From Pseudomonas entomophila L48 (lineage in GTDB: Bacteria > Pseudomonadota > Gammaproteobacteria > Pseudomonadales > Pseudomonadaceae): a DNA stretch of 64,000 nucleotides. The notes under the pieces are model-generated. The model did not search any database. It was not told the DNA's origin and worked only from the letters and a program-made list of their open reading frames with translations. Of the stretch, positions 6,905 to 36,608 are shown piece by piece. The position numbers and the translations under genes were made by a program. The stretch's first letter is position 1. Each line of letters starts with the position of its first letter. The stretch is from the NCBI RefSeq assembly GCF_000026105.1, contig NC_008027.1, positions 3,114,501 to 3,178,500 on the forward strand, written 5' to 3'.

Positions 6905-6930
6905 GAAAAAACCCGCCTCCAGGGCGGGTT
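6905..6930 (-). terminator. Attenuator terminator of ilvA
   Basis: On the minus strand the arms AACCCGCC (6930-6923) and GGCGGGTT (6917-6910) form an 8-bp GC-rich stem with a 5-base loop, followed by a run of Ts through 6906. It lies between the leader peptide and ilvA. A competing helix is possible: GGTTTGG (minus strand of 6954-6960, inside the last leader codons) can pair with CCGAACC (6927-6933), which takes up part of the terminator's 5' arm. This is the layout of translation-coupled attenuation. Confidence 0.85.
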
Positions 6931-6945
6931 CGGTGCACGTACGCG

Positions 6946-7014
6946 CTAGCCCGCCAAACCGATAATGGCGGTAATAATAATGCTGGCGGCGAATGGGTGC
7001 GGGAATGTGTTCAT
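6946..7014 (-). CDS. ilvA leader peptide, 22 residues, Ile-rich
   Basis: ATG at 7014-7012 opens a 22-codon frame reading MNTFPHPFAASIIITAIIGL followed by AG, and it stops with TAG at 6948-6946. Five of its codons are Ile, three of them adjacent, as expected for a leader that senses charged tRNA-Ile. A ribosome stalled at residues 12-18 would leave the GGTTTGG segment free to form the antiterminator; one reaching the stop would cover it and let the terminator form. No Shine-Dalgarno sequence precedes the ATG, and the best promoter places the transcript start next to it, so the leader may be translated from a leaderless mRNA. Confidence 0.8.
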   Translation of the reverse strand: MNTFPHPFAASIIITAIIGLAG

Positions 7015-7578: not shown

Positions 7579-7742
7579 GATTCGCTAGCATAAACGTTTC
7601 CGCACCACCCTTCTCCCTGGCACACGAACGATCGCCGGGCCTCTTCGGCCCTGGCCTTCAGACACGTTCGGCACTGGCCTATCGCCACAGTCTGCGACGG
7701 CCCCCGCATTGGACAACCCCGCATTCGGCTGCTTGTATCTAT

Positions 7743-7803: not shown

Positions 7804-8958
7804 ATGGCTCACACCGTCATGATGGTATTCGGTACCCGCCCTGAAGCAATCAAGATGGCCCCACTGGCCCGTGTGCTACGCACCTGGCCCGGGATCGACC
7901 TGCACATCTGCTCCACCGGCCAGCACCGGGAAATGCTCGAGCAGGTACTCACCGCGTTTGGCCTGAAGGTTGACCAGGACCTGCAGGTGATGACCCAGAA
8001 CCAGACCCTCAACGGCCTGTCCCGCGACCTGCTGGACAAGCTCGACCAGGCCTACGAGCAGGTCAAGCCCGAGATCGTGCTGGTGCACGGCGACACCACC
8101 ACCAGCTTCATCGCCTCGCTGGCCGCCTTCCACCGGCACATCCCCATCGGCCATGTCGAGGCCGGCCTGCGCACCGGCAACCTGCAGCAGCCCTGGCCCG
8201 AGGAGGCCAACCGGCGCCTGACCGGGGTGCTCGCCGACCTGCACTTCACCCCCACCCGTGATTCCGATGCCAACCTGATTCGCGAAGGCGTACCACCCGA
8301 GCACATCGAGGTGACCGGCAACACGGTGATCGACGCCCTGCTGTGGATGCGCGACAAGCTCAAGCACGACAACTGGCGCCCCGCCGCCGATTCGCCGCTC
8401 AATGTGCTGCGCGACGACCAGCGCATGGTGCTGATCACCGGCCACCGCCGCGAGAACTTCGGCAGCGGCTTCGAGCGCATCTGCCTGGCCCTGGCCGAAC
8501 TGGCCCTGCGTTATCCGGACGTGCAGTTCCTCTACCCGGTGCACCTCAACCCGCAGGTGCAGCATGCCGTGTACAGCGTGCTGTCCGGGCGCGAGAACAT
8601 CCACCTGGTGGCGCCCCAGGACTATCCGCACTTCGTCTGGCTGATGAACCGTGCCCACGTGATCCTCACCGACTCCGGTGGTGTGCAGGAAGAGGCGCCC
8701 GCGCTGGGCAAACCGGTGCTTGTGCTGCGCAAGGTCACCGAGCGCCCCGCCGTGCTCAAGGGCGGCACGGTCAAGCTGGTCGGCACCCTGACCGAACGCA
8801 TCGTCCATGAAACCAGCCAACTGCTCGACGACCCGGCCGCCTATGCACGCATGGCGCGGGTATTCACCCCGTTCGGCGACGGCCACGCCAGCGAACGCAT
8901 CGCCGAGCGCCTGACCCGCTGGTTCGCCGACCAATCCGCCACACGGGACAACGCATGA
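7804..8958 (+). CDS. wecB: UDP-N-acetylglucosamine 2-epimerase (non-hydrolysing)
   Basis: A 384-residue cytosolic enzyme that interconverts UDP-GlcNAc and UDP-ManNAc. Family landmarks are the opening VFGTRPEAIKMAPL, VLVHGDTTTSFIASL, the active-site segment HVEAGLRTGN, the UDP-binding ITGHRRENFGSG, and DSGGVQEEAPALGKPVLVLR. Length is standard. GAGGAA precedes the ATG. The stop overlaps the start of nfrB by 4 bases, so the genes are translationally coupled. In E. coli this enzyme is NfrC, needed for the phage N4 receptor; its position here makes supply of ManNAc to the NfrB synthase its likely task rather than enterobacterial common antigen, whose other genes are not in the window. Confidence 0.93.
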   Translation: MAHTVMMVFGTRPEAIKMAPLARVLRTWPGIDLHICSTGQHREMLEQVLTAFGLKVDQDLQVMTQNQTLNGLSRDLLDKLDQAYEQVKPEIVLVHGDTTTSFIASLAAFHRHIPIGHVEAGLRTGNLQQPWPEEANRRLTGVLADLHFTPTRDSDANLIREGVPPEHIEVTGNTVIDALLWMRDKLKHDNWRPAADSPLNVLRDDQRMVLITGHRRENFGSGFERICLALAELALRYPDVQFLYPVHLNPQVQHAVYSVLSGRENIHLVAPQDYPHFVWLMNRAHVILTDSGGVQEEAPALGKPVLVLRKVTERPAVLKGGTVKLVGTLTERIVHETSQLLDDPAAYARMARVFTPFGDGHASERIAERLTRWFADQSATRDNA

Positions 8959-11129
8959 GCCTGGCTTTCATCGACTTCCTCACCTATGTCCTGTTCGGCC
9001 TGAAGATCCTCGCCATCGTCCTGGCCACGCTGATGTTCGTGCTGGGCCTGGACGACCTGTTCATCGACCTGTGCTACTGGGGCCGCAAGCTGATCCGGCG
9101 CTTCCGCATTTACGACAAGTTCGAAAAGGCCGACGAGAAACGCCTGTTCGAGGTGCCGGAAAAACCCCTGGCGATCATGGTCCCGGCCTGGAACGAGGTG
9201 GGCGTGGTCGGCGAGATGGCGCGCCTGGCGGCCTCGACTATCGACTACGAGAACTACCAGATCTTCGTCGGCACCTACCCCAACGACCCACAAACGCAGG
9301 CCGACGTCGACGCCGTGTGCCTGCACTACCCCAACGTGCACAAGGTGGTCTGCGCCCGCCCCGGCCCCACCAGCAAGGCCGACTGCCTGAACAACATCAT
9401 CGACGCCATCCTGCGCTTCCAGCAGGACGCGCGCATCGAGTTCGCAGGTTTCATCCTGCATGACGCCGAAGATGTCATCTCGCCCATGGAACTGCGGCTG
9501 TTCAACTACCTGTTGCCGAACAAGGACATGATCCAGATCCCGGTGTACCCCTATGCGCCGGAGTGGAAGGGCTTCACCGCCGGGCACTACGTCGACGAGT
9601 TCGCCGAGAACCACGGCAAGGACGTCATCGTGCGCGAGGCGCTCACCGGCCAGGTGCCCAGCGCGGGGGTCGGCACCTGCTTCAGCCGCCGGGCAATCAG
9701 CGCGCTGCTGGAGGATGGCGACGGCATCGCCTTCGATGTGCAGAGCCTTACCGAGGACTACGACATCGGTTTCCGCCTGAAGCAGAAAGGCATGAAGTGC
9801 ATCTTCGCCCGCTACTCGATCACCGACCCGGCGCTGGCCCTCAAGCAGGACTGGCGCCCCGGCATGAGCCGCGAATTCTCCCAGGTGATCTGCGTGCGCG
9901 AGCACTTCCCCCGGGACTGGCAGCACGCCATCCGGCAGAAGTCGCGGTGGATCGTCGGCATCGTGTTCCAGGGCACCAGCAACCTCGGCTGGAGCCGCAA
10001 GGGCGCGCTGAACTACTTCCTCTGGCGCGACCGCCGCGGGCTGTTCGCCTACCTGCTGAGCTTTTTGGTCAACCTGTTGCTGCTGGTGCTGCTGGCGATG
10101 TGGCTGGTCACGGTGATCGCGCCGGAGTCGTGGCGCTTCATGTCGATCCTCGGCGACAGCAAGCTGCTCTCCACCCTGCTCTGGCTCAATGGCCTGCTGC
10201 TGGTCAACCGCCTGTTCCAGCGTGGCTGGTTCGTGACCCGCTACTACGGCATCTTCGAAGGATTGCTGTCGGCGCCGCGGATGATGTGGAGCAACTTCGT
10301 CAACTTCTTCGCCAACCTGCGCGCGCTGCGCCAGGTCATGGAGATGGGCGACTCGCGCCGGGTGGCCTGGGACAAGACCACCCACGAGTTCCCCGCCCTC
10401 GCTTCGCCGGCGCGCACGCCCCTGGGCCAGCGCCTGGTGGAGAAAGGCCTGATCAACGAAGAACAACTGCACCAGGCGATCACCAGCCCGGTGCGCCGGC
10501 GCCTGGGCCGCGAGCTGCTGCTGCGCGGCTGGCTGAACAGCGAGCAACTGGCCGAGGCCCTGGCCGAACAGCTGGACTTGCCGTGGGCGCCACTCAACCC
10601 GTTCAAGATTTCACCGGTGCTGATCAAGCAACTGCCACGCAAGCTCGCGACCCACTACGGTGTGCTACCGGTGGACGAAGACGGCGATACCCTGGTGCTG
10701 GCCAGCGAAAGCCCGGTCAGCCAAGTGTCGCTGGGGGTCATCAGCCGCCAGCTCAAGCGTCCGGTGCGCGCCCGACTGGCGCCTCAGGGGCGGGTAACGC
10801 TCGGCCTGCGCTACCACTACCCGAGCGAATGGCAAAAACCCGAGACCCGCGAGATGCTCGCCGTGCTCGAACGCCGCCAGGACGACGCCAGGCTGCTCGA
10901 AGACGTCAGCACCCACCAGGTGATGCTTGGCACCCTGCTGCAGGTGCGCGGCATGGTTCCGGCGACCCTGTTCAACCAGGCGCTGATCGACTTCGACCCC
11001 GAGCGCCAGAGCCTGGGCGAACACCTGATCAGCCGCGGCATCATCACCGAAGAGATCCTGCAGCAGGCTCTCGCCGAACAGGCCAGCGAACAGCAGGCCG
11101 CCTATGACCTGACCCGGGAGGTGGCATGA
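8955..11129 (+). CDS. nfrB: NfrB-like membrane glycosyltransferase with c-di-GMP-binding MshEN modules
   Basis: A 724-residue inner-membrane polysaccharide synthase. The order is: N-terminal membrane segment (about 8-35); family-2 glycosyltransferase core with DAED (170-173), TED (266-268) and QKSRW (328-332), the D,D,D,QxxRW set of processive synthases; membrane helices (about 355-430); then MshEN-type repeats, TPLGQRLVEKGLINEEQL from 488 and RRLGRELLLRGWLNSEQL from 515, with a further pair near 655-720 (MLGTLLQVRG and SLGEHLISRGIITEEIL). MshEN repeats bind c-di-GMP. The organisation matches E. coli NfrB, the phage N4 adsorption protein B, described as a c-di-GMP-dependent synthase of a ManNAc-containing glycan. 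The start overlaps the wecB stop and its stop overlaps the nfrA start. Confidence 0.9.
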   Translation: MSLAFIDFLTYVLFGLKILAIVLATLMFVLGLDDLFIDLCYWGRKLIRRFRIYDKFEKADEKRLFEVPEKPLAIMVPAWNEVGVVGEMARLAASTIDYENYQIFVGTYPNDPQTQADVDAVCLHYPNVHKVVCARPGPTSKADCLNNIIDAILRFQQDARIEFAGFILHDAEDVISPMELRLFNYLLPNKDMIQIPVYPYAPEWKGFTAGHYVDEFAENHGKDVIVREALTGQVPSAGVGTCFSRRAISALLEDGDGIAFDVQSLTEDYDIGFRLKQKGMKCIFARYSITDPALALKQDWRPGMSREFSQVICVREHFPRDWQHAIRQKSRWIVGIVFQGTSNLGWSRKGALNYFLWRDRRGLFAYLLSFLVNLLLLVLLAMWLVTVIAPESWRFMSILGDSKLLSTLLWLNGLLLVNRLFQRGWFVTRYYGIFEGLLSAPRMMWSNFVNFFANLRALRQVMEMGDSRRVAWDKTTHEFPALASPARTPLGQRLVEKGLINEEQLHQAITSPVRRRLGRELLLRGWLNSEQLAEALAEQLDLPWAPLNPFKISPVLIKQLPRKLATHYGVLPVDEDGDTLVLASESPVSQVSLGVISRQLKRPVRARLAPQGRVTLGLRYHYPSEWQKPETREMLAVLERRQDDARLLEDVSTHQVMLGTLLQVRGMVPATLFNQALIDFDPERQSLGEHLISRGIITEEILQQALAEQASEQQAAYDLTREVA

Positions 11130-14128
11130 AGCCCCGTCTTTCCCTGACGATCGCCAGCCTGCTGCTGTGTTCTTCCGCCCTCGCCGCCCCGACGGCCCCC
11201 ATGACCGACTTCCAGCGCTTCACCAGTTTCCCGTTCATGGAGCGCGGTTACCGTGAAGCGCAGAAGGACAACTGGCCCGAGGTCGAGCGCCTGACCCGCC
11301 ATGTGCTCAAGCGCGTGCCCAACAACAACGAGGCCCGCGCCCTGCTGGCCGAATCGCTCGCGCACCAGCGCCGCTACAAGGAAGCCGAGGCGATCGCCGA
11401 GGACCTCGACGATAACCCCGAGCATGCCGATGCCCTGCTCGAACTGCGCCTGACCTGGATCGAGCAGGATCCGCCGCCGGCCAGCCAGGTCGAGGGCTGG
11501 ATCGCCAGCAGCAACAGCAACCAGCGCATCCGCCTGTGGCAGGCCTATAGCCTGAGCCTGGCCAAGTTCGGCGGTGCGCGCCGTGCCCTGGACTGGCTCA
11601 ACCAGTTGCCACCGCGCGACGACGGCATGGTGCTGCGCCTGGCCCGGGGCAACTTTTCCGAACAGTTGCGCAACTGGGGCGAAACCATCGACCAGTTGCA
11701 ACCGCTGGCCGACAAGGGTCAATTGCCGCCGGAGGACTGGCAGCGCCTGGCCAACGCCTATATCCAGCAGGTCGATGAAAAAGGCCTGAACAAGCTGCTG
11801 GCCAGTGCGCCTTCGCAAGAGGCCGCCACCCGTGCCCGCCTGGCCATGGCCGACCGCGCCATCGCCATGGGCCACAACCAGCAGGCCGAACGCTGGCTGC
11901 ACAGCGTGCCGGCCGATCAACTTCAGCGGCCCGAACAGCGCAAGCAGTTGTGGGAATTGGCCCGCGAAGGCGACGACGCACCGCTGGTGCAACACCTGAG
12001 CAACGAGTTGCAGCGCCCCTGCCTGGAAACCGTCGACTGGCTGTCGCGCAAGGACCTGGCCCTGGCCCGCGAACAGCTCAAGGGCTGCCAGGCCAGCGAC
12101 AACCCACGCTCGTACGCCATCCTCAAGCAGCGCCTGTATGGTGACCCGCCCCAACCTGCGCAGCCACGCACGGCGGCGCAGTGGGAGCAGCGCTACCGCC
12201 AGACCGGCGACCTCGCCGCTTTGGAACAAGCCAGCTTCATGCTGCTCGACCAAGGCCACGGCGAGCGCGTCCGACAACTGTTGGCACAAGCCTATGACCG
12301 CCGCCAGGGGCGCCTGACGCCCTCGCTGCTGCAGCGCCTGGGCAATCTCTATGCGCGCAACGACAGCCCGCTGGACACCCGACGCATGCTTGCCCTGATG
12401 CCCCGGGTCGATGCCGCCACCCGGGGCCTGCTGCTCGGCCGCCTGGCCGAGGCCGGTGAGTGCGAGGCCGTGCGTGGCGCGATACCGGCCAACCCGACCG
12501 AAGCCGGCCAGTACCGTGCGCTGGGCCGCTGCGCGATGCCCGACCAACCCGGCGAAGCGGTGGTCTACTACCAGGCCGCTGACCGCCTCGGCGACCCAGG
12601 CAGCCGCCTGCCCTTGGCCTACGCCCTGGAGGCCTCCGGTGATTCGCAAGCGGCCTTGCCGATCTGGAACAGCCTGCCCGCCAGCGCCTGGACCGACAAT
12701 GCCCGCCTGACCGCCGCGCGGGGCGCGCTGAACACTGGCGATGCCAGCAGCGCCCGTCGCCACTGGGACGCGGCCGCGCACAACAGCGCCGACGACTGGG
12801 CGCTGGGCGCCGCGATTGCCCAACGCCAGGGCGACCTGCCACAAGCCTTGGCCTTTCAACGCGAAGCCCTGCGCCATAACCCACGCGCCGACCACTACTA
12901 CGCTGCCGCTGGCACCGCCCAGCAGGCCGGTGACACCGCCCAGAGCACCGCTTGGCTGGCTGAGGCCGTGCGCATGGCCCCGGACCAGCCGCGCTACCGC
13001 GCCGACTACGGCATGCGCCTGGCCGGCGCCGAGGACAAGGCCCAGCGTCGCCAGTCGATCCCCTACCTGGAGCAAGCCACCCGCGACTTCCCCGAGGACT
13101 ACCGCCTCGGCGAAACCCTCGCCCTGCGCTACGACGAGGTCGAGAACAGCGCGGCGGCCCGCCGCGAACTGCGCCGAGTGCTGGATGTGGAGCAGAACCT
13201 GGTCGACGGCGATGACGAATACGGCAGCCTGGAAGCGCGCAAGTATCGCCAGCGTCGTGCCCACGAAACCCTGTCGCGGCGCGACAGCGTCACCCTGGCC
13301 AGCACCTGGTCGCCTGCCGGCACTTCCACCAACGACCGCTTCCTCGACAACGGCACCCGCAGCGGCAGCTCGCGCAAGGCGCAGTCGCAGAACGTGCAAC
13401 TGGCAATGTGGGACCACGCCCTGGGCGAAGAGCCCAGCCGCAACGGCAGCACCCTGTCGGTGTACGGCCGGGTGTTGTTCGGCGGCCAGAGCCGCACCGA
13501 CTACGCCCAGAGCATGGGCACCGGCGTCGGCCTGCGCTACAAGCCGCTGGGCCAGGCCAACCTCAACCTGTATGCCGAGCTCTACCACCAGCGCCAGGTC
13601 GACAGTGACCACTACAGCGGCCTGAGCCTGGGCGAGCTGCTCAGCCCGGCCAAGGTCGGCGGCAACTGGGGCGACCTGCGCCACCATGCGGAATCGAGCA
13701 ACGACCTGCTGCTGCGCGCCACCGCCTCGTTCCTCGACCAGGGCAGGTACCGCAACGACTGGCGCATCGACGAAGACGACTGGGATGAACGCTTCCTTTA
13801 TCTGGACGCCGCCTGGTGGACCCGCGCCGGCGACCATGCCTGGCTGTCGCGCTTGCAGCAGGGCCATGCCTGGAAGCTGCCCAGCCAGTCGCCGCAGACG
13901 ATCATGCCCTACGGTTTCCTCGAGTTCTCCAGCCAAGACCCCAGCAACGACTGGCGCCAGGATGCCCGCGCCGGTGTTGGCGTGCGCTGGCAGTGGTGGT
14001 TCGACGACGACCGCTACAACGCGTACCGCGGCTCGTTGAAAGTGCGCGCCGAGTACCAGCAGGCGCTGGGCGGCAACCTCTATGAACGCGCCAACGGAGT
14101 GCTGCTGGGTGTGGAGATGAACTTCTGA
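11126..14128 (+). CDS. nfrA: NfrA-like outer-membrane polysaccharide exporter / phage N4 adsorption protein A
   Basis: A 1000-residue secreted protein. A signal peptide (about 1-20, ending SSALAA) is followed by a long TPR-like helical solenoid (about 30-620, many Ala/Leu-rich 34-residue-like helical pairs) and a C-terminal part (about 660-1000) rich in Tyr, Trp and alternating polar residues that ends VLLGVEMNF. The terminal Phe is the outer-membrane beta-barrel signature. This plan, periplasmic TPR scaffold plus barrel, is shared by NfrA and by exporters such as BcsC, PgaA and PelB. The ATG overlaps the nfrB TGA by 4 bases. In E. coli NfrA is the surface receptor and export channel partnering NfrB. 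Confidence 0.88.
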   Translation: MKPRLSLTIASLLLCSSALAAPTAPMTDFQRFTSFPFMERGYREAQKDNWPEVERLTRHVLKRVPNNNEARALLAESLAHQRRYKEAEAIAEDLDDNPEHADALLELRLTWIEQDPPPASQVEGWIASSNSNQRIRLWQAYSLSLAKFGGARRALDWLNQLPPRDDGMVLRLARGNFSEQLRNWGETIDQLQPLADKGQLPPEDWQRLANAYIQQVDEKGLNKLLASAPSQEAATRARLAMADRAIAMGHNQQAERWLHSVPADQLQRPEQRKQLWELAREGDDAPLVQHLSNELQRPCLETVDWLSRKDLALAREQLKGCQASDNPRSYAILKQRLYGDPPQPAQPRTAAQWEQRYRQTGDLAALEQASFMLLDQGHGERVRQLLAQAYDRRQGRLTPSLLQRLGNLYARNDSPLDTRRMLALMPRVDAATRGLLLGRLAEAGECEAVRGAIPANPTEAGQYRALGRCAMPDQPGEAVVYYQAADRLGDPGSRLPLAYALEASGDSQAALPIWNSLPASAWTDNARLTAARGALNTGDASSARRHWDAAAHNSADDWALGAAIAQRQGDLPQALAFQREALRHNPRADHYYAAAGTAQQAGDTAQSTAWLAEAVRMAPDQPRYRADYGMRLAGAEDKAQRRQSIPYLEQATRDFPEDYRLGETLALRYDEVENSAAARRELRRVLDVEQNLVDGDDEYGSLEARKYRQRRAHETLSRRDSVTLASTWSPAGTSTNDRFLDNGTRSGSSRKAQSQNVQLAMWDHALGEEPSRNGSTLSVYGRVLFGGQSRTDYAQSMGTGVGLRYKPLGQANLNLYAELYHQRQVDSDHYSGLSLGELLSPAKVGGNWGDLRHHAESSNDLLLRATASFLDQGRYRNDWRIDEDDWDERFLYLDAAWWTRAGDHAWLSRLQQGHAWKLPSQSPQTIMPYGFLEFSSQDPSNDWRQDARAGVGVRWQWWFDDDRYNAYRGSLKVRAEYQQALGGNLYERANGVLLGVEMNF

Positions 14129-14967
14129 TGCGTACCTTCCTGGCCATCTGCCTGCTCGCCCTGTGCCTGCCCGCCCAAGCCGACCAGCGCCTGTTCTACC
14201 AACCGCTGAACCGCGACGCGGACGTTACTCCGGCGCAATGGCAACAGCTGTGGCGCGCCACCGTGGCCCAAGGCGGCAAGACCCTGATCGTGCAGTGGAG
14301 CGCCTATGGCGACAGCGACTTCGGCGCCGCCCGGGGCTGGCTGGCCAACAGCCTGCGCGAGGCCCGCGCCCAAGGGCTGGAGCTGGTACTCGGGCTATAC
14401 ATGGACCCGGCGTACTACCAGCGCCTGCAGGAACTCGACGGTGAAGGCCTGAACAGCTACTTCAAGGCCCAGCTGGGCCGCTCGCTCACCCAATACCAGC
14501 AACTGCGCACACGTTGGGAACTGCCAGTCAGCGGCTGGTACCTTCCGCTTGAGCTGGACGACCTGCATTTTCGCGACCCGGCTAGACGTGATGCGCTGCG
14601 CACACAGCTGCAAGCCTTCAATCGGCAACTGGACAAACCCCTGCATATCAGCGCCTTCAGCGCAGGCCAGCTGTCACCACGGGTCAATGGCGCGTGGCTC
14701 GATCAACTGGCAAGCCTTGGCCTGAGTGTCTGGTGGCAGGACGGCGCGGGGACCGGGCGCTTGGCGCCGATGGTGCGCCAGGGCTATGAACAGGCGCTGC
14801 CCTGCCGGGTGGGAATTGTGCGCGAAGCGTTCCGTCAGGTCAGCCATCCAGGCCAACCTTTCCGTGCGGAGCCGGCACAGCCCGCCCTCAACGGAGGCTG
14901 CCATGCCGAAGCGGTGTTCGCCCTCAGGTACAGGCCCTGGGCCAAGGGCGTGCTTTCCTACCCCTAG
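14128..14967 (+). CDS. Periplasmic DUF4434-type glycosidase-like protein
   Basis: A 279-residue secreted protein with a signal peptide (MRTFLAICLLALCLPAQA, then D). The remaining sequence looks like a TIM-barrel glycoside-hydrolase fold: strand-like segments KTLIVQWSAYG, LELVLGLYMDP, VSGWYLPLELDDLHF and LHISAFSAG, with acidic residues in ELDD as possible catalytic groups. I assign it to the DUF4434 family on these features. E. coli has a gene of unknown function (ybcH) beside nfrA that may be comparable, from memory. The TGATG overlap with nfrA shows it belongs to the operon, so trimming or processing of the NfrB product is a reasonable inference but not shown. Confidence 0.75.
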   Translation: MRTFLAICLLALCLPAQADQRLFYQPLNRDADVTPAQWQQLWRATVAQGGKTLIVQWSAYGDSDFGAARGWLANSLREARAQGLELVLGLYMDPAYYQRLQELDGEGLNSYFKAQLGRSLTQYQQLRTRWELPVSGWYLPLELDDLHFRDPARRDALRTQLQAFNRQLDKPLHISAFSAGQLSPRVNGAWLDQLASLGLSVWWQDGAGTGRLAPMVRQGYEQALPCRVGIVREAFRQVSHPGQPFRAEPAQPALNGGCHAEAVFALRYRPWAKGVLSYP

Positions 14968-15000
14968 GCACAGCGATGCATGGCACCGGCGCTGCCGGTG

Positions 15001-15065
15001 TTCGCGGGTAAACCCGCTCCTACAGGGGTCGCACCGTATCTGTAGGAGCCGGCTTTGCCGGCGAA
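15001..15065. repeat. Pair of REP elements between DUF4434 gene and diguanylate cyclase
   Basis: Copy one (15001-15024) is TTCGCGGGTAAACCCGCTCC ending TACA. Copy two (15041-15065) is TGTAGGAGCCGGCTTTGCCG ending GCGAA, in the opposite orientation. They sit in the 183-base gap of the operon and may reduce read-through into the cyclase gene. Confidence 0.85.
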
Positions 15066-15150
15066 AGGGCCAGACCGATCAACACCAAACTGTCGCCTTC
15101 ACACAAGCCGTGAAAGCGACAATAAACCTGAAGGACCTTGCCGGCCCACC

Positions 15151-16239
15151 ATGTACAAGACCCTGGAAGCCCACATCCGCCAGCAGGTCGCCCCCGCCGC
15201 CCTGCGCGCCGAGTTCCGTCAGCACGAATTCGAGGCGATGCGCCGCTTCTGCCTGCTGATCTTCTGCATCGGCATCGCCATCTGGCTGGTCTTCGACCTG
15301 ATCGTCAGCTACCTGGGCGGCCAGGGCTTCACCTGGTTGTCGGGCCTGTTCATCGCCCTGCTGTGCAGCCTCACCGTGGTCCTGGGCTTCACTCGCAAGA
15401 GCCAGCACTTCGACGTGCTCAACCTATTGTTCGTGGCGGTGATCACCCTGGCCATGCGCCTGGTGATCGAGGGCATCCCCATCGTCCTGCGCCCAGTGTG
15501 GCTGGTGCTCGGGGTGTCGACTGTGCTGTACACCGTATCGGTGTTGCCGGTGCGGCGCTGGTCGTTCTTCTGCGCCATGGGCATCACCTGGCTCATGCTC
15601 AACCCCTTCTTCCACACGCGTATCGCATTGCTGGAACTCGAGGGGGCGATGCTGTTCAGTTATGCGCTGTGCCTCAGCGGCCTGGTGACCTACAGCTACC
15701 TGCGCCTGCGCCAGGCCAAGCTGCACAATTTCTACCTGACCAAGGTGCTGCTGGAGCAAGCCTATGTCGACGCCCTGACCGAGATCCCCAACCGCCGCTC
15801 GTTCATGGCCAAAGCCGAGAAGCAGCTGCAGCAAGCTGGCCCTGGGCAGTTTTTGGCGATGATCGATATCGACAACTTCAAGAAGGTCAACGACCGCTTC
15901 GGGCATGACATCGGCGATGAAGTGCTCAAGCGCGTGGCGGGGCATATCAAGGCGGCGATGGTTGGTTTCGAGATCGCAAGGCTGGGTGGTGAGGAGTTCG
16001 CGATCTTTTTCCAGGGGCTGAATGAGCAAGGGGCCGAGGAGCAGGTCGGGGCCCTGTGCCAGCGAGTGCGCGAGGATGCAGCGGAGCATCCGGTGACCAT
16101 CAGCATCGGGCTGACCCGGGTCGACAGCGGGGATACCCTGACCCTGGCGCTGATCCGTGCGGACCAGGCGTTATATGAGGCCAAGCACACGGGCAAGGAC
16201 CGATTCGTGGTGTGGGACCACCGTCTTGCGGATGCCTGA
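15151..16239 (+). CDS. Membrane diguanylate cyclase (GGDEF)
   Basis: A 362-residue inner-membrane protein. A short cytosolic start is followed by six predicted helices (about 30-195) with no known sensor signature, then a GGDEF domain (about 200-360). The active-site motif is GGEEF (279-283), with DIDNFKKVNDRFGHDIGD and the NRRSFMAKA stretch before it, so synthesis of c-di-GMP from GTP is expected. The RxxD inhibitory site normally five residues before GGDEF is absent (VGFE instead), so product feedback through that site is not expected. ATG at 15151 has AAGGA 15 bases upstream. It follows the nfr operon after a REP pair and is a natural candidate to activate NfrB, as DgcJ does in E. coli. 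Confidence 0.88.
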   Translation: MYKTLEAHIRQQVAPAALRAEFRQHEFEAMRRFCLLIFCIGIAIWLVFDLIVSYLGGQGFTWLSGLFIALLCSLTVVLGFTRKSQHFDVLNLLFVAVITLAMRLVIEGIPIVLRPVWLVLGVSTVLYTVSVLPVRRWSFFCAMGITWLMLNPFFHTRIALLELEGAMLFSYALCLSGLVTYSYLRLRQAKLHNFYLTKVLLEQAYVDALTEIPNRRSFMAKAEKQLQQAGPGQFLAMIDIDNFKKVNDRFGHDIGDEVLKRVAGHIKAAMVGFEIARLGGEEFAIFFQGLNEQGAEEQVGALCQRVREDAAEHPVTISIGLTRVDSGDTLTLALIRADQALYEAKHTGKDRFVVWDHRLADA

Positions 16240-16285: not shown

Positions 16286-17584
16286 TCAGCCCGCCGGCAG
16301 TCGAATCCTGAATTGTGCGCCCCCCAACGCCGACTGCGCCACGGTCAGCGTCCCCCCCTGCCCCTCGATGGCCCGGCGACTGATCGCCAACCCCAACCCA
16401 AACCCGCCGGTATTGCGATCACGGCTACGGTCCAAGCGATAGAACGGCTGGAAGATCCGCTCGCGTTCTTCGGTCGGGATACCGATGCCATCGTCCTCCA
16501 CCGTCAGCAGGCAGGCACCATCTGCTTCCAGGCGCAAGCGCAGCAGCAGGCTCTCGTCACAATAACGCATGGCATTGCGCACCAGGTTTTGCACCGCACG
16601 CGCGGTCAGGCGAGGGTCGAGCACGAAGCGCGGCAGGTTCGCGTCGGCGCGCACCTCCCACTGGATGCCACGGCTGTCGAGCTCCTCGGCGAACCCTCCC
16701 AACACACTGTCCACCAGCTCCAGCAACGACACCTCGACCCGCTCGCGGGCCTGGTCGAGGCTTTCCATGCGGCTGTAGGACAGCAGTTCGAGCACCAGCT
16801 CGTCCAGCTCACGCACATGGCCCACCAGTTCCAACAGGCGCTTGCGGCTGGGCGGCGGCACTTCGTCGAACAGCAGCACCAGGCCGAAATCCAGGCGGGT
16901 CAAGGGGGTGCGCAACTCGTGGGATACCGCATTGAGCAGTTCGCGCTGCTGGTTCACATGGCGCTCCAGGTCACTGGCCATGGTGTCGAACACTCCGGCC
17001 AGTTCGCCGATGTTCGAGCGCGGCGAGATATGCGTGCGCTCCGACATTTCGCCATGCCCCAGGCGCCGGGCGGTTTCCTTCAGCCTTTCCAGATCGCGCC
17101 AGTGCGGCCATACCCACAACAGCAGGCAGCCGAGCATGGCCGCACCGATCAGCACGGTCACGCCCCAGGACAGCACGTTGATGTCCAGCGGGTCGTCCGG
17201 TGAATGCAGGCGCACCATCCACTCCCCGTCCAACGCCGCCAGCGCCGTTTCGTAGTAACCCCAGTCGGCCAACCGCACCACGAACAGGCCATGCTCGATC
17301 CGGGCTTTCTCCTCGGGGCTCAGGTCGGCGTCAGCAATGCGCTCCAAACGCACCTCCAGCGGCTTGAACACCGTGGCGAGGTCTTTTTCCACCACCGGCC
17401 ACTGCTCCCGTGGCACCTGCTGGAACTGGCGCACGATCAAGGTCTGTACGCCCTTGGCCTGCTCGAGGTTGTAGGCCACGAAGCGGTCATGGAACAGCCC
17501 GACGATGGTGTCGGGAATCAACGCGATAGCGCCGGCATAGGCGACGATGATCACCAGGTACAGCCGCACCAGGATCTTGAGCAT
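16286..17584 (-). CDS. Sensor histidine kinase, RstB-like
   Basis: A 432-residue inner-membrane kinase. Transmembrane helix 1 is at about 5-25, a periplasmic sensor region follows (about 30-135), helix 2 is at about 138-160, then HAMP, then the dimerisation and phosphoacceptor segment with H222 in AVSHELRTPLTRLDF, and a HATPase domain with N-box LVRNAMRY, EDDGIGIP and GGFGLGLAI. It follows the response-regulator gene with a 6-base gap, forming a two-component operon. The pair is divergent from an RND efflux operon, so control of that pump in response to an envelope or solvent signal is likely, though unproven. The sensor region has no family I can name. Confidence 0.9.
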   Translation of the reverse strand: MLKILVRLYLVIIVAYAGAIALIPDTIVGLFHDRFVAYNLEQAKGVQTLIVRQFQQVPREQWPVVEKDLATVFKPLEVRLERIADADLSPEEKARIEHGLFVVRLADWGYYETALAALDGEWMVRLHSPDDPLDINVLSWGVTVLIGAAMLGCLLLWVWPHWRDLERLKETARRLGHGEMSERTHISPRSNIGELAGVFDTMASDLERHVNQQRELLNAVSHELRTPLTRLDFGLVLLFDEVPPPSRKRLLELVGHVRELDELVLELLSYSRMESLDQARERVEVSLLELVDSVLGGFAEELDSRGIQWEVRADANLPRFVLDPRLTARAVQNLVRNAMRYCDESLLLRLRLEADGACLLTVEDDGIGIPTEERERIFQPFYRLDRSRDRNTGGFGLGLAISRRAIEGQGGTLTVAQSALGGAQFRIRLPAG

Positions 17585-17590
17585 GGCCTG

Positions 17591-18292
17591 TCAGTACTCC
17601 CACTCGACCCGGCTGAACAGGTAGCCCTTGCCCCACACGGTCTTGATCTTGCGCGCTTCGCCGGCGTTGTCGTCGAAGCGCCGGCGCAGCTTGGAGATGG
17701 CCACGTCCACCGAACGGTCGGTGCCGTTGAACTCGATGCCGCGCAATTGCTGGAGAATGCGGTCGCGGCTCATCACCTCGCCGGCATTGCGCGCCAGCAC
17801 CACCAGCAGGTTGTACTCGCCGCTGGACAGCTCCACCTCCTCGCCGCGCCAGCTGACGCTACGCTCGGCCAGGTCGATGCGCAGGCCGCCGACCTGGATC
17901 AGGTCGCTGTCCAGGCGCGGCTCGTTGACGCTGCTGCGGCGCAGCAGGGTGCGCACGCGGGCCAGCAAAACCCGGGGCTCGCAGGGCTTGGTGACGTAGT
18001 CATCGGCGCCCATTTCCAGGCCCAGCACCTGGTCGTGGCTGTCGTCGCGGGCGGTCAGCATCAGGATCGGCAGGCACTGCGTCTCCTGGCGCAGCAGGCG
18101 GCACACCTGCAGGCCATCCAGGCCCGGGAGCATGAGGTCGAGGATCACCAGGTCCGGTTTCTGCCGACGGAATTCGTCCAGCACATGGTCGCCCCGGGCA
18201 ATCACCCGGACATGGAAATCGTTGCGTTGCAGGTAGCTGGCGATCAGCTCGGACAGCGCGCTGTCGTCTTCGACCAGGAGAATGTTGGGCAT
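17591..18292 (-). CDS. OmpR/PhoB-type response regulator, RstA-like
   Basis: A 233-residue DNA-binding regulator. The receiver domain (1-115) has the acidic pair ED at 8-9, the phosphoacceptor D52 in VILDLMLPGLDG, and the K in YVTKPCEPRVLLARV. The C-terminal winged helix (about 130-230) ends KIKTVWGKGYLFS. ATG at 18292 (MPNILLVEDD) is chosen because the receiver begins there; the frame is open 24 codons further upstream without homology. No strong ribosome-binding site is visible. It is co-transcribed with the kinase and shares a 159-base divergent region with the RND adaptor gene. Confidence 0.9.
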   Translation of the reverse strand: MPNILLVEDDSALSELIASYLQRNDFHVRVIARGDHVLDEFRRQKPDLVILDLMLPGLDGLQVCRLLRQETQCLPILMLTARDDSHDQVLGLEMGADDYVTKPCEPRVLLARVRTLLRRSSVNEPRLDSDLIQVGGLRIDLAERSVSWRGEEVELSSGEYNLLVVLARNAGEVMSRDRILQQLRGIEFNGTDRSVDVAISKLRRRFDDNAGEARKIKTVWGKGYLFSRVEWEY

Positions 18293-18389
18293 AAAGTGAA
18301 TTTGACGAAAGATTGAAGTCAGGCAGGATATAGAATCCTGCGCCAGGCGCCGCCAACGCTTCACACTTTTTCACATACCGCCTACACAG

Positions 18390-35726: not shown

Positions 35727-36082
35727 CATAACAAGAACAAAAAACGCGACACCCAATAAGAACAATAGAGAACGGCTCTGACATAACAAGAACAACACGG
35801 CAGAGGCGTAGCAAGCAGATTTTTTTGGAGTCGACGTGCTTTTCAGGGGTTCGCCCCGCAACCTGACACAGAACAATAAAACTACCTGCAAGGTAGCGGC
35901 AGTCACGGTTGGATCACGTTGGATGAACGCAGGTCAGCGCTCAAAAAAATACGTTTGCTCTTGGCCCCGGGTAGGGGCCCTGCGGTACCGAGGCAACGGC
36001 TGACAAAAACAACAACAGGCCCGTCTCCAATAATAATAAAAGAGCAGGCAACAACGCTTTGAGGGGAGCTTCGGCTCCCCTC
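35727..36082 (+). ncRNA. crcY: CrcY-type small RNA, antagonist of Hfq/Crc
   Basis: An approximately 355-base non-coding stretch, strikingly AT-rich for this genome, holds at least six A-rich motifs of the ANNAANAA kind that bind Hfq/Crc: near 35730, 35755, 35784, 35871, 36003 and 36028. It lies between mvaB and mgtC, where crcY lies in P. putida, and is preceded by a sigma-54 promoter and CbrB-like sites. The RNA would titrate Hfq/Crc and relieve carbon catabolite repression when good carbon sources run out. The 3' end is placed at the 9-bp UUCG hairpin 36061-36082, which lacks a U-run and overlaps the mgtC stop codon, so the exact end is uncertain. Confidence 0.88.
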
Positions 36083-36608
36083 AGTGCTTCCTGCCCTCGT
36101 CCTTCTCGTGCTCCCCCTCGCGTTCACCTTCCACCTTCTCCACCAGCACCGGCATGCTGCACAGCACCAGCAGCGCCAGTACCGTGCTGATCAATGCCGT
36201 TGCCTCGCGCCCCATGCCTGCGGCGGTGCCGATAGCGGCGGTCATCCAGAGCCCGGCGGCGGTGGTCAGGCCTTTCACATGACTGGTGTCCTGGCCATGC
36301 CCCTTGAGAATGGTGCCGGCCCCCAAGAACCCGATACCGGCAACGATGCCCTGGATGATCCGGCTCAGCGCTTGCTCGTCCGCGCCAGCCATGCCCGGGG
36401 CAAGCACGAACAGCGCCGCCCCCATGCACACCAGCATGTGCGTGCGCACACCGGCCGCCTTGCCCTTGCTCTCGCGCTCGAAGCCCAGTACGGCACCCAG
36501 CAATGCCGCCATCAGCAGGCGCAGGAGCACCTGTGTCACTTCGTGCTCATCGGTGATATCGGCGAATTCGGCTTGCAGCGTCGTCCAGATGGCTTCCCAG
36601 GTCTGCAT
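36081..36608 (-). CDS. MgtC/SapB-family membrane protein
   Basis: A 175-residue inner-membrane protein. About four to five helices include the family hallmark RLLMAALLGAVLGFERESKG followed by GVRTHMLVCMGAALF and IIQGIVAGIGFLGAGTILK. The C-terminus is short and highly charged (EKVEGEREGEHEKDEGRKH), without the soluble domain of true MgtC virulence factors. The family role is unsettled (Mg2+ stress, ATP synthase interaction). The start at 36608 has GGAGG 9 bases upstream; a longer frame exists but runs through a REP pair. It converges on crcY and shares its terminal hairpin. Confidence 0.85.
   Translation of the reverse strand: MQTWEAIWTTLQAEFADITDEHEVTQVLLRLLMAALLGAVLGFERESKGKAAGVRTHMLVCMGAALFVLAPGMAGADEQALSRIIQGIVAGIGFLGAGTILKGHGQDTSHVKGLTTAAGLWMTAAIGTAAGMGREATALISTVLALLVLCSMPVLVEKVEGEREGEHEKDEGRKH

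What the first reader, a model, noticed from the sequence alone, without database searches (positions are those of the whole stretch)
7804..16239. Self-contained Nfr-type exopolysaccharide locus: epimerase, synthase, exporter, glycosidase-like protein and its own diguanylate cyclase
Seen: wecB, nfrB, nfrA and a DUF4434 gene overlap by 1-4 bases, and a membrane GGDEF protein follows on the same strand after a REP pair. Known: in E. coli NfrA, NfrB and WecB (NfrC) form the phage N4 receptor pathway, NfrB responds to c-di-GMP through its MshEN repeats, and the cyclase DgcJ feeds it; there the genes are scattered. Inference: here all parts are gathered into one unit, so the Pseudomonas version likely makes and secretes a ManNAc-containing surface glycan under local c-di-GMP control, and may serve as a phage receptor.
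Basis: partly seen in the sequence, partly recalled or inferred. Interest (0 to 1): 0.8.

Follow-up and report, generated by a model that had tools for sequence, protein, structure and literature searches.

The report
Nfr glycan operon with own cyclase
This is a Pseudomonas version of a known set of genes that makes and exports a surface sugar chain, with a gene for the signal c-di-GMP attached; the arrangement has been described before, but the signal gene sometimes outlives the rest, so it probably does more than switch this one sugar on.

Summary
wecB, nfrB, nfrA and ybcH (DUF4434) are packed with 1-4 nt overlaps, and a membrane GGDEF cyclase follows after a REP pair. The arrangement is in print: Junkermeier and Hengge 2021 (PMC8669469, passages read) report linked wecB and a putative cyclase beside nfr in most pseudomonads. 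In E. coli nfrBA-ybcH is also an operon; only wecB and dgcJ lie elsewhere.

Beyond that paper: (1) of 249 Pseudomonas genomes 41 have NfrB, 50 the cyclase, 36 both; in one clade ybcH and the cyclase gene overlap by 17-23 nt, so the REP looks like a later insertion. (2) An element TTGGACAA-N10-GGCTGCTT (window 7709-7734) lies upstream of 38 of 41 nfr loci, in more than one genomic context. (3) 14 genomes have the cyclase without NfrB; in four of them the element sits 88-104 nt before the cyclase gene. Its active-site motif is intact in all 14, with dN/dS 0.06-0.10 in one such clade. So the cyclase is co-operonic but probably not private to NfrB. It is not DgcJ and lacks the RxxD inhibition site. 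A phage-receptor role is plausible, not shown.

The parts
7709..7734 (+). conserved upstream element TTGGACAA-N10-GGCTGCTT (possible promoter or operator), 95 nt before wecB
   Evidence: <=2 mismatches upstream of 38 of 41 nfr loci, 0 of 4100 single-base shuffles; only exact match in the own genome
7804..8958 (+). wecB (nfrC), UDP-GlcNAc 2-epimerase
   Evidence: TIGR00236 464 bits vs cut-off 210
8955..11129 (+). nfrB, GT2 synthase with C-terminal c-di-GMP-binding MshEN region
   Evidence: NF008411 1253 bits vs 1170; Pfam MshEN residues 540-625, NF053729 residues 489-539; catalytic and c-di-GMP-site residues
11126..14128 (+). nfrA, TPR + outer-membrane exporter
   Evidence: NF007302 1295 bits vs 1223; PF13283 NfrA_C
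14128..14967 (+). ybcH homologue (DUF4434), TIM-barrel glycosidase-like protein
15005..15060 (.). REP doublet between ybcH and the cyclase gene
   Evidence: short gaps of 15-43 nt without it in L035, L037, L049, L054, L056, L057
15151..16239 (+). membrane diguanylate cyclase (GGEEF, no RxxD I-site); ATG start, alternative TTG at 15055
   Evidence: PF00990 119.7 bits; GGEEF in 49 of 49, RxxD in 0 of 49 aligned copies

Best explanation
A five-gene Nfr operon of the Pseudomonas type. WecB makes UDP-ManNAc; the inner-membrane GT2 enzyme NfrB polymerises it when c-di-GMP is bound to its MshEN region; NfrA exports the chain through the outer membrane; YbcH is a periplasmic glycosidase-like accessory that probably trims or guides the chain. 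The fifth gene, a membrane cyclase of ImcA-like build without the canonical feedback site, is transcribed with the others from an upstream region marked by TTGGACAA-N10-GGCTGCTT and supplies c-di-GMP. Its product probably also serves at least one target other than NfrB, since it is retained in genomes without NfrB. Shown by sequence: gene identity, order, overlaps, conserved residues, the element, the retention. Inferred: sugar identity, direction of regulation, promoter activity, cotranscription in the window's own strain, cyclase activity, YbcH catalysis, the second target.
For: Family cut-offs. NfrB D170, TED 266-268, QxxRW 328-332 and L490, G491, L494, L505, L517, G518, L536 identical in 41 of 41; these include positions mutated in E. 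coli NfrB (D169, D267, W330, L490, G491, L537 in PMC8669469; L505, L518, G519 in PMC8669472). wecB rule: 7 of 7 NfrB genomes without linked wecB carry an unlinked WecB of 53-56% identity, against 3 of 34 with linked wecB that carry a second one of >=49% (Fisher 5e-6). Cyclase in 36 of 41 genomes with NfrB and 14 of 208 without (Fisher 1e-26, not corrected for relatedness). ybcH-cyclase overlap of 17-23 nt in 10 loci and 20 of 80 named loci (artefacts L070 and L168 left out; the two sets share genomes). Element upstream of 38 of 41 loci and directly upstream of the cyclase gene in G033, G095, G208, G242. dN/dS 0.06-0.10 among G033/G095/G208.
Against: No experiment. The element is not reported as a sigma-70 promoter by a simple scan. 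5 of 41 NfrB genomes lack the cyclase, and none of nine neighbour proteins scanned there is a GGDEF protein. The genome has a second WecB-family gene (225 bits), so UDP-ManNAc could have another source or use. YbcH was dispensable for N4 infection in E. coli. dN/dS is higher (0.22, 0.26) in two comparisons with the NfrB-less G188 and G086.
Confidence: 0.8

Rival explanations
1. Strictly dedicated local cyclase: it acts only on NfrB, as proposed for DgcJ in E. coli.
For: Co-occurrence in 36 of 41, 17-23 nt overlaps, literature suggestion of a specific role; higher dN/dS in the comparisons with G188 and G086.
Against: GGEEF cyclase without internal stops in 14 NfrB-less genomes, dN/dS 0.06-0.10 in the G033/G095/G208 clade, orthologues in an unrelated efflux-gene context.
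Confidence: 0.2
2. The cyclase is an independent gene beside which nfr merely inserted; the linkage is positional.
For: Cyclase-only loci exist in a third context (TM_HPP gene - cyclase - efflux genes); in the window a REP pair separates the genes.
Against: The pair stays adjacent in at least two unrelated contexts, overlaps in one clade, is present in the P. nitroreducens/resinovorans-type loci, and nfr relics show losses rather than late insertion in several genomes.
Confidence: 0.12
3. The product is not a ManNAc polymer: NfrB uses UDP-GlcNAc or a mixed donor, and wecB serves another glycan.
For: No chemical structure of the glycan was seen in the passages read; a second WecB-family gene exists.
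Against: wecB presence rule; E. coli genetics: wecB needed, wecC and wecA not.
Confidence: 0.15

Closest known systems
E. coli nfrBA-ybcH / NGR system (PMC8669469, PMC8669472; passages read)
   Same: NfrB, NfrA and YbcH orthologous and in the same order; c-di-GMP-site and GT residues kept; needs WecB
   Different: wecB linked here; cyclase linked and not DgcJ-like (DgcJ model 76 vs 500 bits; no dCache reported by Pfam); FliA-like site upstream not above shuffles for the window, whereas the E. coli operon is FliA-dependent
nfr loci of other pseudomonads, e.g. P. soli SJ10 (PMC8669469)
   Same: linked wecB; putative cyclase beside nfr in most pseudomonads
   Different: essentially the same kind; the window is a further member, nearest among named loci to P. 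entomophila COR5 (NfrB 99%)
ImcA of P. aeruginosa (8wcn; PMC10904736, passages read)
   Same: six-transmembrane + GGDEF build; the one listed chain aligned over nearly the whole model (346 residues)
   Different: rmsd 7.0, 22% identity; its partner IsmP was not looked for here; likeness of build, not shown kinship
PslG-type exopolysaccharide hydrolases

Membership tests
NfrB (NF008411) / NGR system | NfrB above curated cut-off with the catalytic D, TED and QxxRW | tested here: met
   1253/1170 bits; residues
NfrB (NF008411) / NGR system | MshEN c-di-GMP-site residues | tested here: met
   L490, G491, L494, L505, L517 (Ec L518), G518 (Ec G519), L536 (Ec L537) in 41 of 41; Ec L495, L509 and M522 are V, I and L in the window, Ec I500 is I or L, Ec S486/L487 not kept
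NfrB (NF008411) / NGR system | NfrA and YbcH orthologues adjacent | tested here: met
   cut-offs met, order
NfrB (NF008411) / NGR system | WecB available | tested here: met
   linked wecB
NfrB (NF008411) / NGR system | makes a surface glycan that c-di-GMP switches on | not testable with these tools
   needs experiment
DgcJ | DgcJ equivalog NF040885 | tested here: not met
   76 bits vs cut-off 500
DgcJ | periplasmic dCache domain | tested here: not met
   Pfam reports GGDEF only; the model has helices only before the GGDEF domain
Diguanylate cyclase (GGDEF) | GGDEF/GGEEF active-site motif | tested here: met
   GGEEF at residue 279; 49 of 49 copies
Diguanylate cyclase (GGDEF) | RxxD inhibitory site (common, not required) | tested here: not met
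   0 of 49 copies
N4-type phage receptor | a phage adsorbs to this NfrA or its glycan | not testable with these tools
   only indirect: gp65 module in Pseudomonas phages

The most novel reading that the evidence does not exclude
The Nfr operon is a c-di-GMP unit in which the cyclase, not the glycan machinery, can be the durable part: where the glycan genes are gone the cyclase often stays, in four genomes right behind the nfr element, and in one clade under clear purifying selection. It then serves a second, unknown output that in nfr-bearing strains is coupled to glycan synthesis. Loss of the glycan (perhaps driven by phages) would leave a cyclase under what was the glycan's promoter.
Probability: 0.5. 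Interest if true: 0.6.

Novelty: new member of a known kind. Interest (0 to 1): 0.42.

Why it matters
Whether a cyclase that is encoded together with a c-di-GMP-dependent synthase is truly private to it is an open question in c-di-GMP signalling. Natural genomes here supply the test set: cyclase with nfr, nfr without cyclase, and cyclase left alone behind the nfr element. The element gives a handle on regulation that seems to differ from the FliA control known in E. coli. The locus is also a candidate receptor system for Pseudomonas phages.

Tried and rejected
FliA control: FliA-like sites are not above single-base shuffles for most upstream regions (8-9 of 13 positions against shuffle means of 8.2-9.2; L047, L049 and L074 reach 10, L068 11). 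A sigma-70 promoter at the element: not reported by the simple scan. Pseudogene decay of the cyclase in NfrB-less genomes: the TAG flagged for G235 and G191 did not appear as an internal stop when the genes were translated, so the idea was dropped; among nfr-bearing genomes the G158 copy (L070) does show two stops, and L168 has only a fragment match. Element as a genome-wide regulon: at <=1 mismatch 74 of 249 genomes have a match; 35 are nfr loci, 4 cyclase-only loci and 2 relics, which leaves 33 genomes, against 35 genomes with a match to the reversed control pattern (recounted), so the rest is at chance level; the neighbours of the other hits were not examined except G059 and G068, which showed no nfr gene. 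Deletion scar at the G208/G033 junction: 13-14 of 22 bases identical to the ybcH tail of L069 against a best of 11-12 at other offsets, so only suggestive. Replacement cyclase in the five NfrB genomes without it: ten neighbour proteins scanned (nine from these five loci, one from G009), none GGDEF; not every neighbour was scanned. Halfdan-type matches to N4 gp65 cover residues 53-419, not the middle module, so they were not counted as receptor evidence. (a search term too short) failed and was repeated with longer terms.

Full report
What is there. The five genes lie as described: wecB 7804-8958, nfrB 8955-11129, nfrA 11126-14128, ybcH/DUF4434 14128-14967 and a GGDEF gene 15151-16239, all on the + strand, with a REP doublet at 15005-15060. 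The first four pass the curated NCBIfam cut-offs. The nearest named NfrB locus found is that of P. entomophila COR5 (99%). Upstream lie a PACE transporter gene and a gene that I label ilvA from memory; downstream a convergent two-component pair, best matches RstB and RstA but below their cut-offs.

What is already known. Junkermeier and Hengge 2021 (PMC8669469; passages read) show that E. coli nfrBA-ybcH is an operon, that NfrB binds c-di-GMP, that wecB-like genes are linked to nfrB in organisms with no other copy (P. soli SJ10 named), and that in most pseudomonads a putative cyclase is associated with the operon. Sellner et al. 2021 (PMC8669472; passages read) propose a ManNAc-based glycan, NGR, under DgcJ control. 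In the listings (40 of 101 papers listed), 72 and 73 I saw no paper with a Pseudomonas nfr operon as its subject; PMC6467409, on a P. aeruginosa host of an N4-like phage, names NfrA/NfrB only for E. coli in the two passages found.

Distribution. In 249 Pseudomonas genomes (minimum completeness 95%) NfrB over cut-off is in 41 and a cyclase relative (E <= 1e-40; 50-100% identity; near full length in 49, residues 72-356 in G158) in 50; 36 have both, 5 only NfrB, 14 only the cyclase. Around NfrB, nfrA and ybcH are present in 41 of 41 (40 fetched loci plus window; ybcH cut by a contig end in G166) and wecB is adjacent in 34 of 41. The cyclase gene lies next to ybcH in 35 of 41 loci and on another contig in G166; the G158 copy has stops. 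Among 80 named loci (partly the same genomes; 322 matched, the best 80 kept) a cyclase match is present in 68, one of them a fragment (L168); one of the other 12 (L129) is cut by its contig end. The P. nitroreducens, resinovorans and panipatensis loci also have the five-gene order.

wecB rule. All 7 NfrB genomes without linked wecB have an unlinked WecB (53-56% identity); of the 34 with linked wecB only 3 (G025, G206, G237) have a second one of >=49% (E <= 1e-30). The own genome has a second, weaker TIGR00236 match (225 bits).

Coupling of the cyclase. In one clade ybcH and the cyclase gene overlap by 17 nt (9 loci) or 23 nt (1 locus); 20 of 80 named loci show the same (leaving out L168). In the ilvA/PACE context the gap is 15-347 nt; it is mostly larger where REP cores lie in it, but L042 and L048 have 171 and 135 nt without one. 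The REP in the window is best read as a later insertion into an operon.

The upstream element. TTGGACAA-N10-GGCTGCTT is found with <=2 mismatches within 300 nt upstream of the first gene in 38 of 41 loci and in 0 of 4100 single-base shuffles, in the ilvA/PACE context and in the thioredoxin/TerC context alike; 68 of 80 named loci have it. Eight of the 12 without it are loci that I group, by names and low cyclase identity, as nitroreducens-like (L184, L191-L197). It is exact once in the own genome, with no match of the reversed control. At <=1 mismatch, matches outside nfr, cyclase-only and relic loci occur in 33 of 249 genomes, no more than for the reversed control (35). Its function is not shown.

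Loss of nfr. In G033, G095, G208 and G242 the element lies 88-104 nt upstream of the cyclase gene, without nfr genes. G086 has a 3-mismatch copy of the element, wecB, then by eye sequence like the first codons of nfrB, then the cyclase gene. G188 keeps only the cyclase gene between ilvA and rstB, without the element. The other eight cyclase-only genomes show no element near the gene. Two further genomes lost the cyclase too: G016 keeps the element and wecB codons 1-55, and G219 keeps the element, nfrB 1-143, ybcH 15-276 and only residues 298-360 of the cyclase. The cyclase tree of 49 rows needs at least 4 changes of the nfr label. In the G033/G095/G208 clade dN/dS is 0.06-0.10, against 0.08-0.20 in seven nfr-bearing pairs; three NfrB-less pairs of the efflux-gene context gave 0.12-0.20. 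Two comparisons of an NfrB-less with an NfrB-bearing genome gave higher values, 0.22 (G188) and 0.26 (G086), which would fit some relaxation there (all). GGEEF is intact in 49 of 49 aligned copies and the RxxD site absent in all 49. Six orthologues lie beside RND efflux genes without nfr, so the oldest state is open.

Other lineages. Of 397 genomes across the phylum 6 pass the NfrB cut-off, the own genome included. G418 and G456, nearest to E. coli NfrB, have nfrB-nfrA-ybcH without wecB or cyclase beside them; G388 has genes with GGDEF matches on both sides in the opposite direction; G305 and G385 have the five-gene order without the element.

Phages. N4 gp65 (taken as the 160 kDa protein after gp64; named tail sheath and receptor binding protein in NC_008720) has relatives in 118 phage records, 13 named Pseudomonas. 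Its middle module (300 residues) is in 97 records, 11 of them named Pseudomonas (8 of these with P. syringae hosts), and also in Achromobacter phages and in roughly 145-kb E. coli phages including Justusliebigvirus. Whether those hosts carry nfr is not known; none of the 80 best NfrB loci is P. syringae. For P. aeruginosa phage DEV the abstract in the listing gives other receptors (PMC12892993).

Verdict. A well-supported new member of a published kind. What goes beyond the literature seen here is the conserved element, the overlap that shows close coupling in one clade, and the repeated survival of the cyclase without its supposed partner.

Noticed in passing
window 7709-7734: Conserved element TTGGACAA-N10-GGCTGCTT upstream of nfr loci, binding factor unknown; the downstream half extends to CTGCTTnTnTnTAT.
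   Followed up: partly
L111 (G016), L112 (G219): Relics of deleted nfr operons: element plus wecB codons 1-55, and element plus nfrB start, ybcH and the end of the cyclase gene.
   Followed up: partly
L116 (PP954860, phage Halfdan_Juelich_variant): A phage recorded from P. taiwanensis is filed as a variant of E. coli phage Halfdan; one of its tail-region proteins matches N4 gp65 residues 53-416.
   Followed up: partly
L106, L107, L108, L109: NfrB-like paralogue loci with their own wecB and extra genes; matches of 623-648 bits in 30 of 249 Pseudomonas genomes and of 560-577 bits in 4.
   Followed up: partly
window 6908-6981 (-) and 35728-36115 (+): Rfam matches to sRNAs P9 and CrcZ.
   Followed up: no
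window 16286-18364 (-): Two-component pair nearest to RstBA, convergent with the cyclase gene; the same neighbour in most loci of the ilvA/PACE context.
   Followed up: no
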